Assembly (NCBI RefSeq): GCF_014858005.1
Contig: NZ_JACYOT010000007.1
Location: 124,001-188,000, forward strand
Length of the DNA stretch: 64,000 nt
Direction of reading: 5' to 3'
Origin: Propioniciclava soli
GTDB taxonomy: Bacteria; Actinomycetota; Actinomycetes; Propionibacteriales; Propionibacteriaceae
The notes beneath the pieces are model-generated. The model made no database searches, had not been told where the DNA came from, and worked only from the letters and a program-made list of their open reading frames with translations. Made by a program: the position numbers and the translations under genes. Positions 2,988-59,444 of this stretch are shown here, piece after piece. Position 1 is the stretch's first letter. Every line of letters starts with the position of its first letter.

Positions 2988-3290
2988 TGACCGTGTGTCC
3001 ACCCTGCGGTGGGGGCGCCTCCCTGCCCTTCGGACCGCCTCCCTGTCCTTCGGACCGCCTCCCTGTGCGAAACGCACGGCCCTGCCGTTGCAGCGCTGGG
3101 GAGGAGGGCTTCGAGCAGGGTGCCGTCGACAACGGCAGGGAGGCGAGCTGAACGACAGGGGCGTGGCGCCCTGGCGAAGCGTGGCTCTCCGGCGTGGGGC
3201 ACTTCCCCCGTCCGCCGTAGCGGTGCTCTTCCGGCACGGGGAGCCCCGCTACGGCAGGTTAGCGAAGTGGTCCCGGATGCGGGGCCGCGG
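2988..3290. repeat. Intergenic repeat copy R0 (20-bp-period CCTCCCTG / GGCAGGGAGG family)
   Basis: This 395-base gap (2966-3360) holds no gene. Three 20-bp units starting CGCCTCCCTG lie at 3016-3035, 3036-3055 and 3056-3075. They are followed by GCCCTGCCGTTGCA, a TTCGAGCAGGG stretch and an inverted ACGGCAGGGAGGCG near 3133-3147. The same arrangement (CCTGCCGTTG, then TTCGAACAGGGCGGCG, then GGCAGGGAGGCG) occurs at 58268-58410 and 59278-59444, and inverted at 49040-49107. This copy lacks the CACGTGG module of the other three. The rest of the gap (3150-3360) shows scattered short dyads such as CCGTAGCGGTG / CCCGCTACGGC. Confidence 0.7.
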
Positions 3291-47364: not shown

Positions 47365-48678
47365 ATGTCCGCCGCCCTGCTCGCGGGGATCATCCTCGTC
47401 GTCTGCATCGTCGTCACCCTGGCCCTCGGCGTCCCGATCTCGGTGTCGGTCGGGCTGTCGAGCTTCCTTGCGCTGGCCGCCGTGCTGGGCGCCGAGAGCG
47501 CCGTGTTCGTCGGCAGCCTGCAGATGTTCACCGGCATCAACTCGTTCACGTTGCTGGCGATCCCCTTCTTCATCCTGGCCGGATCGCTGATGAACTCCGG
47601 CGGCATCGCCGGGCGCCTGATCGACGCGGCGAAGGTGCTGGTGGGCAAGATGCCCGGCGGCCTCGCGGCCACGACCGTCGTGTCGAACGCGTTGTTCGGG
47701 TCGGTGTCGGGGGCGGCGGTCGCGTCGTGCGCGGCGGTCGGCAAGGTGATGATCCCCCGCATGGAGGCCGACGGCTACTCGCGTCCGTTCGCGACCGCGA
47801 CCACCGTGGCGTCCGCCCCGTCGGGCATGCTGATCCCGCCGTCGAACACGCTGATCGTGTACTCGCTGGTGTCGTCCACCTCCATCGCCGCGTTGTTCAT
47901 GGGCGGCTACGGGCCGGGCATCGTCTGGATGTTCGCCTGCTTGGCGGTGGTGGGGTGGTACGTGTTCCGCAAGCCGGAGCTGCGCGCCGCGAAGAGCCAC
48001 GAGAAGCTGACCCTCGCGGTCGCGCTGCGGGCGCTGTGGCGGGCCGTCCCGTCGCTGCTGATGATCGTGATCGTGATCGGCGGCATTTTGACGGGCGTGT
48101 TCACCCCGACGGAGTCCGCCGTGATCGCGGTGCTGTACTCGCTGGTGCTGGGCTTCCTCTACCGCGAGATCACGCTGGCTGACCTGCCGGCCATCATCCT
48201 GGACGCCACCCGCACCACGACCATCGTCATGCTGCTCATCGGCGTCAGCTCGATCATGAGCTGGGTGATGAGCTACTCGAAGATTCCCGAGGGGGTCGCA
48301 AACGGCATCCTGGGCCTGACCGACAACCCGACGGTCATCCTGATCCTGATCATGGTGATCCTGCTGATCCTCGGCACGTTCATGGATCCGACCCCGGCGA
48401 TCCTGATCTTCGGACCCATCTTCCTGCCGATCGTCTCCGAGCTCGGGATCCACCCCGTCCACTTCGGCATGATGATGGTGTTCAACCTGTGCCTCGGCAC
48501 CATCACCCCACCGGTGGGCACGGTGCTGTTCGTCGGGGCCCGCGTTGGCGACATCGCGGTGGAGCCCGTGGTGCGCCAGCTGCTGCCGTACTTCGCGGCC
48601 CTGGTGGTCGGGCTCTTCCTGGTGGTGTTCGCTCCCGGACTGTCGATGTGGCTGCCGGAGCTGATGGGTCTGGTCTGA
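47365..48678 (+). CDS. TRAP transporter large permease (DctM family)
   Basis: The 437-residue protein has about twelve membrane segments and DctM motifs such as GSLMNSGGIAGRLIDAAK, FGSVSGAAVAS and LCLGTITPPVGTVLFVG. It carries substrate with sodium as the driving ion. The ATG at 47365 follows GAAGGAG. The R1 repeat array begins about 48 bases past its stop. Confidence 0.94.
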   Translation: MSAALLAGIILVVCIVVTLALGVPISVSVGLSSFLALAAVLGAESAVFVGSLQMFTGINSFTLLAIPFFILAGSLMNSGGIAGRLIDAAKVLVGKMPGGLAATTVVSNALFGSVSGAAVASCAAVGKVMIPRMEADGYSRPFATATTVASAPSGMLIPPSNTLIVYSLVSSTSIAALFMGGYGPGIVWMFACLAVVGWYVFRKPELRAAKSHEKLTLAVALRALWRAVPSLLMIVIVIGGILTGVFTPTESAVIAVLYSLVLGFLYREITLADLPAIILDATRTTTIVMLLIGVSSIMSWVMSYSKIPEGVANGILGLTDNPTVILILIMVILLILGTFMDPTPAILIFGPIFLPIVSELGIHPVHFGMMMVFNLCLGTITPPVGTVLFVGARVGDIAVEPVVRQLLPYFAALVVGLFLVVFAPGLSMWLPELMGLV

Positions 48679-48726
48679 CCTGCGCCGCTTCGGACGCCGC
48701 CCAGTTGGGCTGAGTGGGGGGCGGGG

Positions 48727-48996
48727 CTCACGTGGCGCAGCTGGCGACCACTTGGCGCAGTGGAGCTCACGTGGCGCAGCTGGCGATGACGTGGCGCAGT
48801 GGACCTCACGTGGCGCAGCTGGCGATGACGTGGCGCAATGGAGCTCACGTGGAGGGTCTTGCACGGGCCCCCAGGTGAGTGGCACTGCGCCAGGTGGAGT
48901 TGGGGTGCGCCAAGTGAGCAGCACGGCGCCACGTGGAGTTGGGGTGCGCCAGGTGAGCAGTACGGCGCCAGGTGGAGTTGGGGTGCGCCAGGTGAG
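48727..48996. repeat. R1: palindromic satellite of 39-bp units (3 + centre + 3 inverted)
   Basis: Three 39-bp units starting CTCACGTGGCGCAG lie at 48727-48765, 48766-48804 and 48805-48843. The 36-bp centre (48844-48879) has arms CTCACGTGG and CAGGTGAG. Three 39-bp units in the opposite sense (ending GCGCCAGGTGAG or similar) lie at 48880-48918, 48919-48957 and 48958-48996. Units vary at a few positions. The centre is the reverse complement of the centre in the copies at 58139-58174 and 59148-59183. No known mobile-element gene is present. Confidence 0.85.
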
Positions 48997-49107
48997 CTGC
49001 ATGGCGCGAAGTGGGGGTGCGGCGTCCTGTCTCACGACAGGGAGGAGCAGCGCGGACAGGGCGGCGTCCACAACAACAGGGACGCGACGGCAACGGCAGG
49101 GAGGCGT
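48997..49107. repeat. R1 continuation: 20-bp-period module, inverted orientation
   Basis: The stretch contains GACAGGGCGGCGTCCACAAC and CGACGGCAACGGCAGGGAGG. These are the reverse complement of the 20-bp units at 58268-58347. It runs directly into the truncated binding-protein gene. A small dyad CCTGTC-TCAC-GACAGG lies at about 49026-49041. Confidence 0.75.
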
Positions 49108-49112
49108 CAGCA

Positions 49113-49674
49113 TCAGCAGTACTACCAGTCGTTCTTCACCGAAGGGCTGGCCAACACCGCACCCACGTCCGGCACCACGGAGGCCGACTTCGTCTCCGGC
49201 GCCGTGCCGATGTTCATCTCCGGGCCGTGGATGATGTCCTCGGTCGAGAACCTCGGCGGCGAGGGCTTCGCCGACCAGTACGCGGTGGCTGAGATGCCGA
49301 CCAAGGTGACGAACGCGTCCTTCATCGGCGGTTCCAACCTCGCAGTGTTCAGCGCGAGCGAGAACCGGGACGCGGCCTGGAAGCTGGTCGACTACCTCAC
49401 CCAGGAGGAGACCCAGATCGAGTGGTTCGACATGACCTCGGACCTGCCGTCGGTCCAGTCCGCTTGGGACGACGCCGCCCTGCAGTCCGATGAGAAGCTC
49501 GCCACGTTCGGCGCGCAGCTCGAGACGGCCTACGCGCCGCCGGCGATCCAGACGTGGGAGCAGGTCGCGAACGCCTTCGATGCCGAGGTCGAGCGCGTCA
49601 CGATCACGGGGTCGGACGCCGCCGCAGGCCTGTCCGCCCTGCAGCAGGAAGCCACCTCGATCGGCATGGGCTGA
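49113..49674 (+). pseudogene. 5'-truncated sugar ABC transporter substrate-binding protein
   Basis: Only the C-terminal part (about 187 residues) of a family-1 extracellular solute-binding protein is present. It starts at YYQSFFTEGLANTAPTSG and includes FVSGAVPMFISGPWMMSSVE, FIGGSNLAVFSASENRDAAW, and a terminal GLSALQQEATSIG. Intact members are about 420 residues with a lipoprotein signal, none of which is seen. Upstream of base 49108 the frame runs into the R1 repeat. An open frame from an ATG at 48838 would add only repeat-encoded residues and no export signal. The next two permease genes look intact. Loss of the 5' half implies that uptake by this transporter is broken or uses another binding protein. 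Confidence 0.85.
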
Positions 49675-58095: not shown

Positions 58096-58410
58096 ACGAT
58101 CACGTGGCGCAGTTCACTGGCACGTGGCGCGGGGGAGCTCACGTGGCGGCCCGTGCAAGGCCCTCCACGTGAGTCGCGCTGCGCCACGTGGTGTTGGGGT
58201 GCGCCAGGTGGCTCGAGAAGTGACTCGGAGGGCGCCGACACGCACACTCCGGACTCGAGTGCGCCGGCGTCCCTGCCGTTGCCGTCGCGGCCCTGCCGTT
58301 GGCGTCACGTCCCTGCCGTTGTGGATGCCGCCCTGTCCGTGTTGCTCCCCCCTGCTGTTGCAACGGCAGGGGGGTTGGTTTCGAACAGGGCGGCGACGCC
58401 GACGGCAGGG
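58096..58410. repeat. R2: CACGTGG module plus 20-bp-period module
   Basis: CACGTGGCGCA-type copies lie at 58101, 58121 and near the centre. The centre 58139-58174 (CTCACGTGGCGGCCC....GGAGG-like arms) is followed by GCGCCACGTGG and GCGCCAGGTGG. Five 20-bp units with core CCCTGCCGTT start at 58268, 58288, 58308, 58328 and 58348, ending in the palindrome CCTGCTGTTGCAACGGCAGG. It lies between the GH94 and peptidase E genes and holds no gene. Bases 58121-58407 are about 90% identical to 59130-59376. Confidence 0.85.
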
Positions 58411-58419
58411 GGGCGCGGG

Positions 58420-59052
58420 TCACACGAGTTCCGTCACGTCACCGTCCATGACCAGAGCCTGCCCGTCGCGCAACCCCCAGAACGGCTGGCCGGCGCGCGC
58501 GTAGGCGGAGGCGACCTCGCCCAGCACCACCGATTCGGGATGGGTGGGCGTGTCGAGATGGGGCACGACGGGCCGATCGAGGATCCCCAGCCCGTCGAAG
58601 CGCACCTCGCCGTAGGCACGCTCGCAGTCGCTGACGGGGTCGCACTTCTCCAGGCCTCGTAGCGACGGCGCCAGCACGCAGGGCCCGGCGCTGAAACCGG
58701 CGTAGACGAGCCGGTCGTCTGCCAGCGCGTGGACGAGCGCCTCGTCGGCGCCCGAGCGGGCCATCGCCATGCGCAGCGTGAACACGTTGCCGCCACGCAC
58801 CCACACGAAGTCGACCCCGGCAAGCCGCGCGGCGAGCTCGTCACTCCGGGTCACCCGCAGGTCCAGATCGACGGCGTCGAGGCCGAGCGAGCGCAGCGCG
58901 GCCACCTGCGCGGAGAGGTCCCGGCGACGCCGGTCCTCGTCGTGTCCGTCCAGCGCGTTCATGATCACCGCTCCGCGTCCGTCCCCACGCACCAGCCCGG
59001 TGAGGCGCTCGGGGTGGTCACCGAGTTGGTAGGAGGAGAGGTAAAGACGCAT
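58420..59052 (-). CDS. Peptidase S51 family protein (dipeptidase E / cyanophycinase-like)
   Basis: The 210-residue protein has the S51 nucleophile motif YAGFSAGPCVLAPSLRG (GXSAG) and the pattern WVRGGNVFTLRMAM. Dipeptidase E-type enzymes cleave Asp-X dipeptides in the cytoplasm. Its ATG at 59052 has GATACT 6 bases upstream. It is the only gene between two direct copies of the repeat (R2 and R3), facing opposite to the GH94 gene. Confidence 0.88.
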   Translation of the reverse strand: MRLYLSSYQLGDHPERLTGLVRGDGRGAVIMNALDGHDEDRRRRDLSAQVAALRSLGLDAVDLDLRVTRSDELAARLAGVDFVWVRGGNVFTLRMAMARSGADEALVHALADDRLVYAGFSAGPCVLAPSLRGLEKCDPVSDCERAYGEVRFDGLGILDRPVVPHLDTPTHPESVVLGEVASAYARAGQPFWGLRDGQALVMDGDVTELV

Positions 59053-59086: not shown

Positions 59087-59444
59087 GTTCACCTGGCGCA
59101 TTTCACGTTCACGTGGCGCACGTCCTTGACACGTGGCGCGGGGGAGCTCACGTGGCGGCCCGTGCAAGGCCCTCCACGTGAGCCGCGCTGCGCCACGTGG
59201 GGTTCGGGTGCGCCAAGTGGCTCGAGAAGTGACTCGGAGGGCGCCGACACGCACACTCCGGTCTCGAGTGCGCCGGCGTCCCTGCTGTTGTGGGCGCCGC
59301 CCTGTCCGTGTTGCTCCCCCCTGCTGTTGCAACGGCAGGGTGGTTGGTTTCGAACAGGGCGGCGACGCCGAGGGCAGGGAGGCGCCCGCGACGGCAGGGA
59401 GGCGACGCCGAGGGCAGGGAGGCAGCGACCACGGCAGGGAGGCG
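59087..59444. repeat. R3: CACGTGG module plus 20-bp-period modules
   Basis: The same order as R2: CACGTGGCGC copies (59110, 59130), centre 59148-59183, then three CCCTGC-type 20-bp units at 59278, 59298 and 59318. Four 20-bp units with GGCAGGGA cores follow at 59361-59380, 59381-59400, 59401-59420 and 59421-59440. R2 has two more CCCTGCCGTT units than R3, an exact 40-bp difference. There is no gene in 59053-59512. Confidence 0.85.

What the first reader, a model, noticed from the sequence alone, without database searches (positions are those of the whole stretch)
48727..48996. Perfectly ordered palindromic satellite: three 39-bp units, 36-bp centre, three inverted 39-bp units
Seen directly: unit boundaries fall at exactly 39-base steps on both sides of a 36-base centre that is itself near-palindromic (CTCACGTGG ... 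CAGGTGAG). Every unit carries two TGGCGCA or TGCGCCA blocks about 20 bases apart, so motifs repeat on one face of the helix. Variation within units suggests selection on the layout rather than a recent duplication. No gene, transposase or CRISPR spacers are present. It could be a binding platform for a nucleoid or segregation protein, a hairpin RNA, or a recombination hotspot. I know of no described element with this form.
Basis: seen in the sequence. Interest (0 to 1): 0.8.

Follow-up and report, generated by a model that had tools for sequence, protein, structure and literature searches.

The report
Dispersed inverted arrays of 20-bp sites
The palindromic block is one of some 40 copies of a non-coding element scattered between genes of this bacterium, each built from short conserved sites about 20 bases apart that point inward to a fixed centre, and a sister species carries its own version with different letters, which hints at a fast-changing DNA-binding system or a new sort of selfish repeat.

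Summary
In detail: three 39-bp units, a 36-bp centre, three inverted 39-bp units. It is not unique. The 39-bp unit is a local dimer of a ~20-bp unit: an 11-bp site (CACSTGGCGCA) plus ~9 loosely conserved bases. The block belongs to family A: at least 41 loci by my hand count in this 3.8-Mb genome, none found in 12 congeners. In 39 aligned elements the innermost sites are 48 bp apart in 38, and 171 of 207 unit steps are exactly 20 bp. Sites are conserved, spacers only weakly. The arms are not copies of each other, and variable columns show no compensatory pairing. Elements lie between genes, seldom between divergent ones; the two sites that could be compared are empty in relatives. The same genome has family B with the same plan in other letters; congener G005 has family D likewise. 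Best reading: lineage-specific nucleoprotein arrays for an unidentified sequence-specific DNA-binding protein. Main rival: a selfish dispersed palindromic repeat (BOX/REPIN-like). No protein, binding or function is shown.

The parts
48727..48843 (+). Left arm of the family-A element: three 39-bp units = six ~20-bp sites (CACSTGGCGCA + spacer) pointing to the centre
48844..48879 (.). Centre (36 bp) of the family-A element, near-palindromic with TGCA in the middle; conserved in 38 aligned elements
48880..48996 (-). Right arm: three inverted 39-bp units = six sites
48997..49014 (-). Decayed further unit of the right arm
   Evidence: TRF right array 48871-49014
49038..49119 (-). Half of a family-B element (20-bp CAGGGAGGCG-type units), ending where the truncated binding-protein gene begins
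   Evidence: (C63:173038-173119)
58105..58206 (.). Second family-A element (centre 58138-58173)
58262..58425 (.). Family-B element next to it
59094..59215 (.). Third family-A element (centre 59147-59182)
59277..59423 (.). Family-B element next to it
3036..3163 (.). Family-B element; no A element was found beside it
   Evidence: (C63:127036-127163)

Best explanation
The block is a member of a dispersed, lineage-specific, non-coding element family made of phased protein-binding sites. SHOWN: a fixed near-palindromic centre; inward-pointing 11-bp sites at ~20-bp (about two helical turns) steps on both sides; loosely conserved spacers of fixed length; unit number varying per arm; residence between genes with few elements between divergent genes; no match in 12 congeners; a second family in this genome and a third in a sister species with the same plan but other letters. 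INFERRED: an unidentified sequence-specific DNA-binding protein nucleates on the dyad centre and fills the phased sites outward, making a nucleoprotein patch past gene ends (roadblock, insulator or nucleoid anchor). Arms lengthen by local tandem duplication, and selection on binding keeps the sites better than the spacers. Each lineage has its own site because protein and site co-evolve.
For: Core-anchored profile of 38 elements: innermost site near-invariant (one two-state position), flanking 9-bp spacers 0.1-0.7 bits per position. 285 sites in 39 elements, 171 of 207 steps exactly 20 bp, 48 bp between innermost sites in 38 of 39. Site match falls outward from the centre: 10.63, 10.26, 10.04, 8.95, 8.72, 8.36 of 11 for units 1-6, random best-of-three 5.00. 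Opposite arms not copies of each other. No compensatory pairing at variable columns. Exact solitary sites are not in excess: 4 in 400 kb (2 of them in one A element) against 2.6 expected. Families B and D repeat the plan, with weaker site/spacer contrast. Divergent gaps avoided: 6 of 37 against 28 of 67 gaps of 150 bp or more.
Against: No protein was identified and no binding, expression or phenotype data exist. 20 bp is slightly under two turns of 10.5 bp. Site profiles are ascertained by the motif itself (less so). The outward decay may partly reflect array ends scored as units (a score of 6 or more arises by chance in 0.31 of random places). Absence from 12 congeners fits a selfish repeat as well. 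D sites are less sharply bounded than A sites, and D arms are often very unequal. The two elements of L050 share one gap, so the 6 divergent elements are 5 gaps.
Confidence: 0.42

Rival explanations
1. A selfish dispersed palindromic repeat (BOX-, REPIN- or MITE-like) that spread in this lineage by an enzyme acting in trans; the sites are the enzyme's recognition sites.
For: Lineage-specific amplification, empty sites in relatives at 2 of 2 comparable loci, clustering of A with B (7 of 41 A loci within 1 kb of a B locus, 0.7 expected if uniform and at most ~3.6 if both confined to intergenic DNA, a rough figure), as reported for BOX/RUP/SPRITE (PMC3049150, passages).
Against: No Y1/RAYT transposase found in the genome. 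Spacers of different elements are unrelated, so elements are not recent whole copies. The centre, not the ends, is the fixed point, and I saw by eye no terminal repeat or target duplication in the one site I compared with its empty relative (L045 against L283), which is too diverged for a firm judgement.
Confidence: 0.33
2. A bidirectional RNA hairpin at gene ends (terminator or 3'-end stabiliser).
For: Very stable fold: RNA z -11.2, DNA z -9.5. Convergent gaps somewhat enriched (12 of 37 vs 10 of 67, P 0.046) and 14 of 19 tandem cases nearer the upstream stop (hand count; P 0.064). Many core columns are invariant and pair.
Against: No compensation at variable columns; halves of one core pair less than shuffled halves. 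No terminator-like site in 48600-49250; no 8-nt stretch with 6 or more T within 60 nt after 39 cores on either strand, 0 of 78, a weak test since background is 0.3%. Six of 37 elements lie between divergent genes.
Confidence: 0.15
3. A by-product of replication slippage at a hairpin, with no recognised site.
For: Adjacent units share spacers (0.517), so local duplication occurs; a palindrome is a plausible stalling point (general knowledge).
Against: Slippage copies sites and spacers alike, yet mainly the site and the spacing are shared between loci.
Confidence: 0.1

Closest known systems
BOX elements of Streptococcus pneumoniae (boxA-boxBn-boxC)
   Same: Dispersed, modular, with a variable number of tandem modules, foldable, often clustered with other repeat families (PMC3049150, passages)
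   Different: In BOX the variable module lies between end modules; here the centre is fixed and single and both arms vary. BOX is reported to have terminal inverted repeats and target duplications (passages); I saw neither here, on one weak comparison. boxB is longer than 20 bp (recalled).
REP / REPIN / BIME (RAYT-linked)
   Same: Palindromic, high-copy, families differing between species (PMC3733652, PMC3116915, passages)
   Different: No Y1 transposase found in the genome; GTAG near only 1 of 39 cores; inward-pointing phased arms with unlike spacers are not described in the passages I saw.
parC-type centromeres bound by ParR (e.g. pSK41, 20-bp direct repeats) and iterons
   Same: Tandem ~20-bp protein sites that build a nucleoprotein superstructure (recalled; the paper searches gave only listings)
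   Different: Those are one locus per replicon beside par or rep genes (recalled); here some 40 chromosomal loci, and 20 flanking proteins examined (of about 76) include no partition or mobile gene.
Foldback (FB) elements of Drosophila
   Same: Inverted arrays of short tandem units round a centre (recalled)
   Different: Eukaryotic, much longer, transposing (recalled); no homology is claimed.

Membership tests
REP/REPIN | RAYT/Y1 transposase in the genome | tested here: not met
   PF01797: 0 matches at E 0.01 in own genome; the same search found it in 6 of 14 named control genomes
REP/REPIN | GTAG (or CGTC) tag at one end of the palindrome | tested here: not met
   GTAG or CTAC within the core and 20 bp on each side in 1 of 39 elements; CGTC not counted
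BOX | End modules round a variable number of internal modules | tested here: not met
   Centre fixed, arms variable: 1-8 sites left, 1-7 right
BOX / MITE | Terminal inverted repeats and target-site duplication | tested here: inconclusive
   Two loci printed beside their empty relatives, one compared by eye; too diverged for a duplication to be judged; outer ends decayed
Intrinsic terminator | Hairpin followed by a T-tract | tested here: not met
   0 terminator-like sites in 48600-49250; 0 of 78 core sides with 6 or more T in 8 (background 0.3%)
Structured RNA | Compensatory changes in stems | tested here: not met
   0 of 8 variable column pairs pair more than shuffled (lowest P 0.18); invariant columns cannot be judged; no Rfam match at gathering score in the window
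CRISPR array | Same-direction repeats of ~21 bp or more with unique spacers of similar length, beside cas genes (recalled) | tested here: not met
   11-bp sites, ~9-bp spacers, two inverted arms; cas genes not searched
parC/iteron-type protein-binding array | A cognate protein binds the repeats | not testable with these tools
   No binding data; site/spacer pattern only

The most novel reading that the evidence does not exclude
A fast-turnover class of chromosomal nucleoprotein elements within one genus: species carry dozens of centre-plus-phased-arm arrays written in their own site, kept by a rapidly co-evolving DNA-binding protein, comparable to centromere or hotspot motif turnover in eukaryotes but in bacteria.
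Probability: 0.22. Interest if true: 0.85.

Novelty: new variant of a known kind. Interest (0 to 1): 0.6.

Why it matters
Known short dispersed repeats of bacteria are mostly hairpins or mini-transposons (recalled, and passages). Here the conserved thing is an inward-pointing, ~20-bp-spaced set of sites round a fixed centre, with other letters in each of three families (two in one genome, one in a sister species). If a protein reads them, the genus gives a natural series for how a DNA-binding protein and dozens of genomic sites change together, and the test is simple: pull down the protein with a short array. If instead they are selfish, they are a new architecture of dispersed repeat that shapes gene ends and rearrangements.

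Tried and rejected
Assembly artefact: rejected for family A (39 elements, different flanks, unlike arms). Family B does lie within 200 bp of several contig ends (C4:57, C15:57, C63:84, C54:405797 of 405848), so the junction at 49119/49120 could still be a mis-join.

Inverted duplication as origin: rejected, arms are not copies.

Known insertion-sequence end: not excluded formally; no Y1 transposase, no transposase among 20 flanking proteins of about 76, no match in plasmids or phages at E 1e-5, none in viral contigs with an exact two-unit pattern with a 9-bp spacer.

REP, Rfam RNA, terminator: see membership test. Weak G009 hit to B: no array there on reading the stretch. Two-unit pattern elsewhere: 6 of the other 197 family genomes and 10 of the other 390 order genomes, 1-4 matches each. 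I viewed the six family ones: three single pairs (G168, G171, G214), a three-unit 21-bp array (G115), a longer 21-bp array (G140), and in G114 a small inverted array whose sites point outward round an A-tract, the reverse of the plan here. The five further order genomes were not viewed. Shared B/D centre pattern: matched G000 and G158 only; the pattern I wrote did not fit D, so it is uninformative. 22-bp arrays in G001 and G011 are one-directional; opposite-strand arrays lie roughly 0.9-1.3 kb off in L264 and L332 but share no centre, so I did not count them as this plan. G008 gave only 60 kb of sample.

Naming the species failed: the one genome-contig scan used a transporter gene and returned other genera; a high-GC actinobacterium is inferred only.

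Full report
THE OBSERVATION. The block at 48727-48996 is exactly as described: three 39-bp units, a 36-bp centre, three inverted 39-bp units. Ten of twelve heptamer blocks are exact and two read GGCGCCA. In 1000 dinucleotide shuffles of the surrounding 1.8 kb no window of 262 bp held more than 3 exact heptamers; the real one holds 10.

IT IS A FAMILY. BLAST of the block against its own genome gives 100 matching pieces (40 of 76 first-look candidates scored); merged by hand they are 41 loci (list), a lower bound. Most show the same anatomy: sites pointing inward to a conserved centre. At 39 of the 41 I could place the centre (48 raw places, 9 with 10 or more mismatches dropped as chance); the two left out (L028, L032) have sites but no recognisable centre. 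The 39 hold 285 sites (8 or more of 11 letters); 171 of 207 steps are 20 bp and 22 are 19 bp; the innermost sites are 48 bp apart in 38 of 39. The 39-bp unit of this locus is a dimer of the general ~20-bp unit.

WHAT IS CONSERVED. In 38 elements laid on the centre, the innermost 11-bp site CACSTGGCGCA is nearly invariant, while the 9-bp spacers next out carry 0.1-0.7 bits per position. Sites fade outward, though part of that is array ends being scored. Spacers of neighbouring units in one arm are alike (0.517), those of opposite arms are not (0.333, against 0.354 between elements), so arms grow by local duplication and were not made by inverting one another.

HAIRPIN OR SITE. The block folds very stably as RNA or DNA, as any such layout must. 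But at columns that vary, pairing is not kept: columns 19/82, 28/73, 31/70, 38/63 and 42/59 pair no more than shuffled; 30/71, 45/56 and 48/53 pair less; spacers pair less (107 of 342 against 125, sd 8). Columns 45/56 and 48/53 show that the middle is an asymmetric 16-mer met in either orientation (the orientation I gave some elements is arbitrary), so the deficit there reflects a conserved asymmetry and not necessarily selection against pairing. Invariant columns cannot be judged. No T-tract was found.

WHERE IT SITS. With a codon-usage gene caller, 38 of 39 elements do not overlap a gene (the exception may be a mis-called start); of 37 with both neighbours, 19 are tandem, 12 convergent, 6 divergent (the 6 are 5 gaps). 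Against gaps of at least 150 bp in 400 kb of the same genome (29 tandem, 10 convergent, 28 divergent; with at least 250 bp 19, 6, 14) divergent gaps are avoided (P 0.009) and convergent ones mildly preferred (P 0.046). Flanking proteins are ordinary: 20 examined of about 76, among them a GroEL-type chaperonin, pyrophosphatase, PheT, acetate kinase, RsmB.

WHO HAS IT. The core matched 1 of 57 genomes, its own. The two-unit pattern occurs 89 times here and in none of 12 congeners (two of them only ~72% complete); 7 of 198 family genomes (own included) and 11 of 391 order genomes (own included) have any, the others 1-4 times. Flank proteins of the 39 elements were compared with 400-kb samples of G001 and G005. 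Four loci had both nearest neighbours in one sampled stretch; in two (L038, L044) these lie 8.0 and 4.6 kb apart there and say nothing; in the other two they are neighbours and the site is empty: 63 bp between the matched parts of an OsmC-like and an acetyltransferase gene in G005 instead of 267 bp here, and 36 bp in G001 instead of 763 bp. No plasmid, phage or viral-contig match.

THE SAME PLAN IN OTHER LETTERS. The same genome has family B: 20-bp units around CGCCNCCCTGCCGTT, a centre around GTTGCAAC, inverted arms. My hand list has 33 places (two of them 140 bp apart; only 40 of 186 candidates were scored), and no congener match but one weak hit in G009 without an array. Of 22 B clusters printed, 20 have arms of both directions; one of the other two starts at a contig end. 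In three of three cases B lies beside A in this window, and 7 of 41 A loci have B within 1 kb. Congener G005 has family D: units near GACGAGCCGCCCCCGYTTGN at 20 bp, 112 matches in 35 clusters, none in the 12 other genomes; its arms are often very unequal. Its centre comes in versions: CAGTTGCCCCC..TGCA..GGGGGCAACTG-like at 4 of 30 loci by a pattern that demanded GCA, and CGTAGGAACG-like middles in most of the elements I printed. So TGCA is the middle of most A and B centres but only of some D centres. G001 and G011 have 22-bp direct arrays without inverted arms round a centre. The plan is thus seen in 2 of 5 genomes of the genus sampled (own included; G008 by 60 kb, G011 by 180 kb).

MECHANISM. 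Conserved site, loose spacer, fixed step and inward orientation are what arrays of protein sites look like; conserved pairing is not seen where it could be. I therefore favour an unknown DNA-binding protein that assembles from the centre outward; the main alternative is a selfish repeat whose enzyme reads the sites. Neither the protein nor any effect is shown.

LITERATURE. I read passages of PMC3049150 (BOX), PMC3733652 (tagged REPs) and PMC3116915 (REPINs), and only listings otherwise. From titles and abstract starts, none of the ten searches listed an element of this plan; they cover open-licence PMC papers only.

Noticed in passing
49120-49674: A sugar-type ABC binding-protein gene lacks its first half and begins exactly where a family-B array ends; a relative's first half finds only this fragment and other binding proteins at 23-30% identity in the genome. 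Element-linked deletion or a mis-join.
   Followed up: partly
L056:3240-3310, also L029, L038, L044: Family C: a 56-bp palindrome (GGCATTTGGACCCGAGGAAATGGCGCCAT and its complement), at least 40 loci at 89-100% identity, own genome only among 13 of the genus (40 of 49 candidates scored); one copy lies about 20 bp from an A element (L056).
   Followed up: partly
58105-58425 and 59094-59423: A 210-aa gene (58420-59052, minus strand; family not searched) lies between two near-identical A+B pairs, as if the pair had been duplicated.
   Followed up: no
L267:1-1137 (G005): About 55 units of 20 bp with several centres in ~1.1 kb before a gene.
   Followed up: no
L332:17592-17826 and L333:11607-11779 (G011), L264:11431-11508 (G001): 22-bp direct arrays with motif near GCCGAGGACTTCGG, no inverted arms round a centre.
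   Followed up: partly
L081 (G140): A 21-bp direct array of CACGTGGCGCA-like units beside CCCTGAGCCTGTCGAAGGG.
   Followed up: no
L079 (G114): A small array of TGGCGCA-type sites pointing outward on both sides of an A-tract.
   Followed up: no
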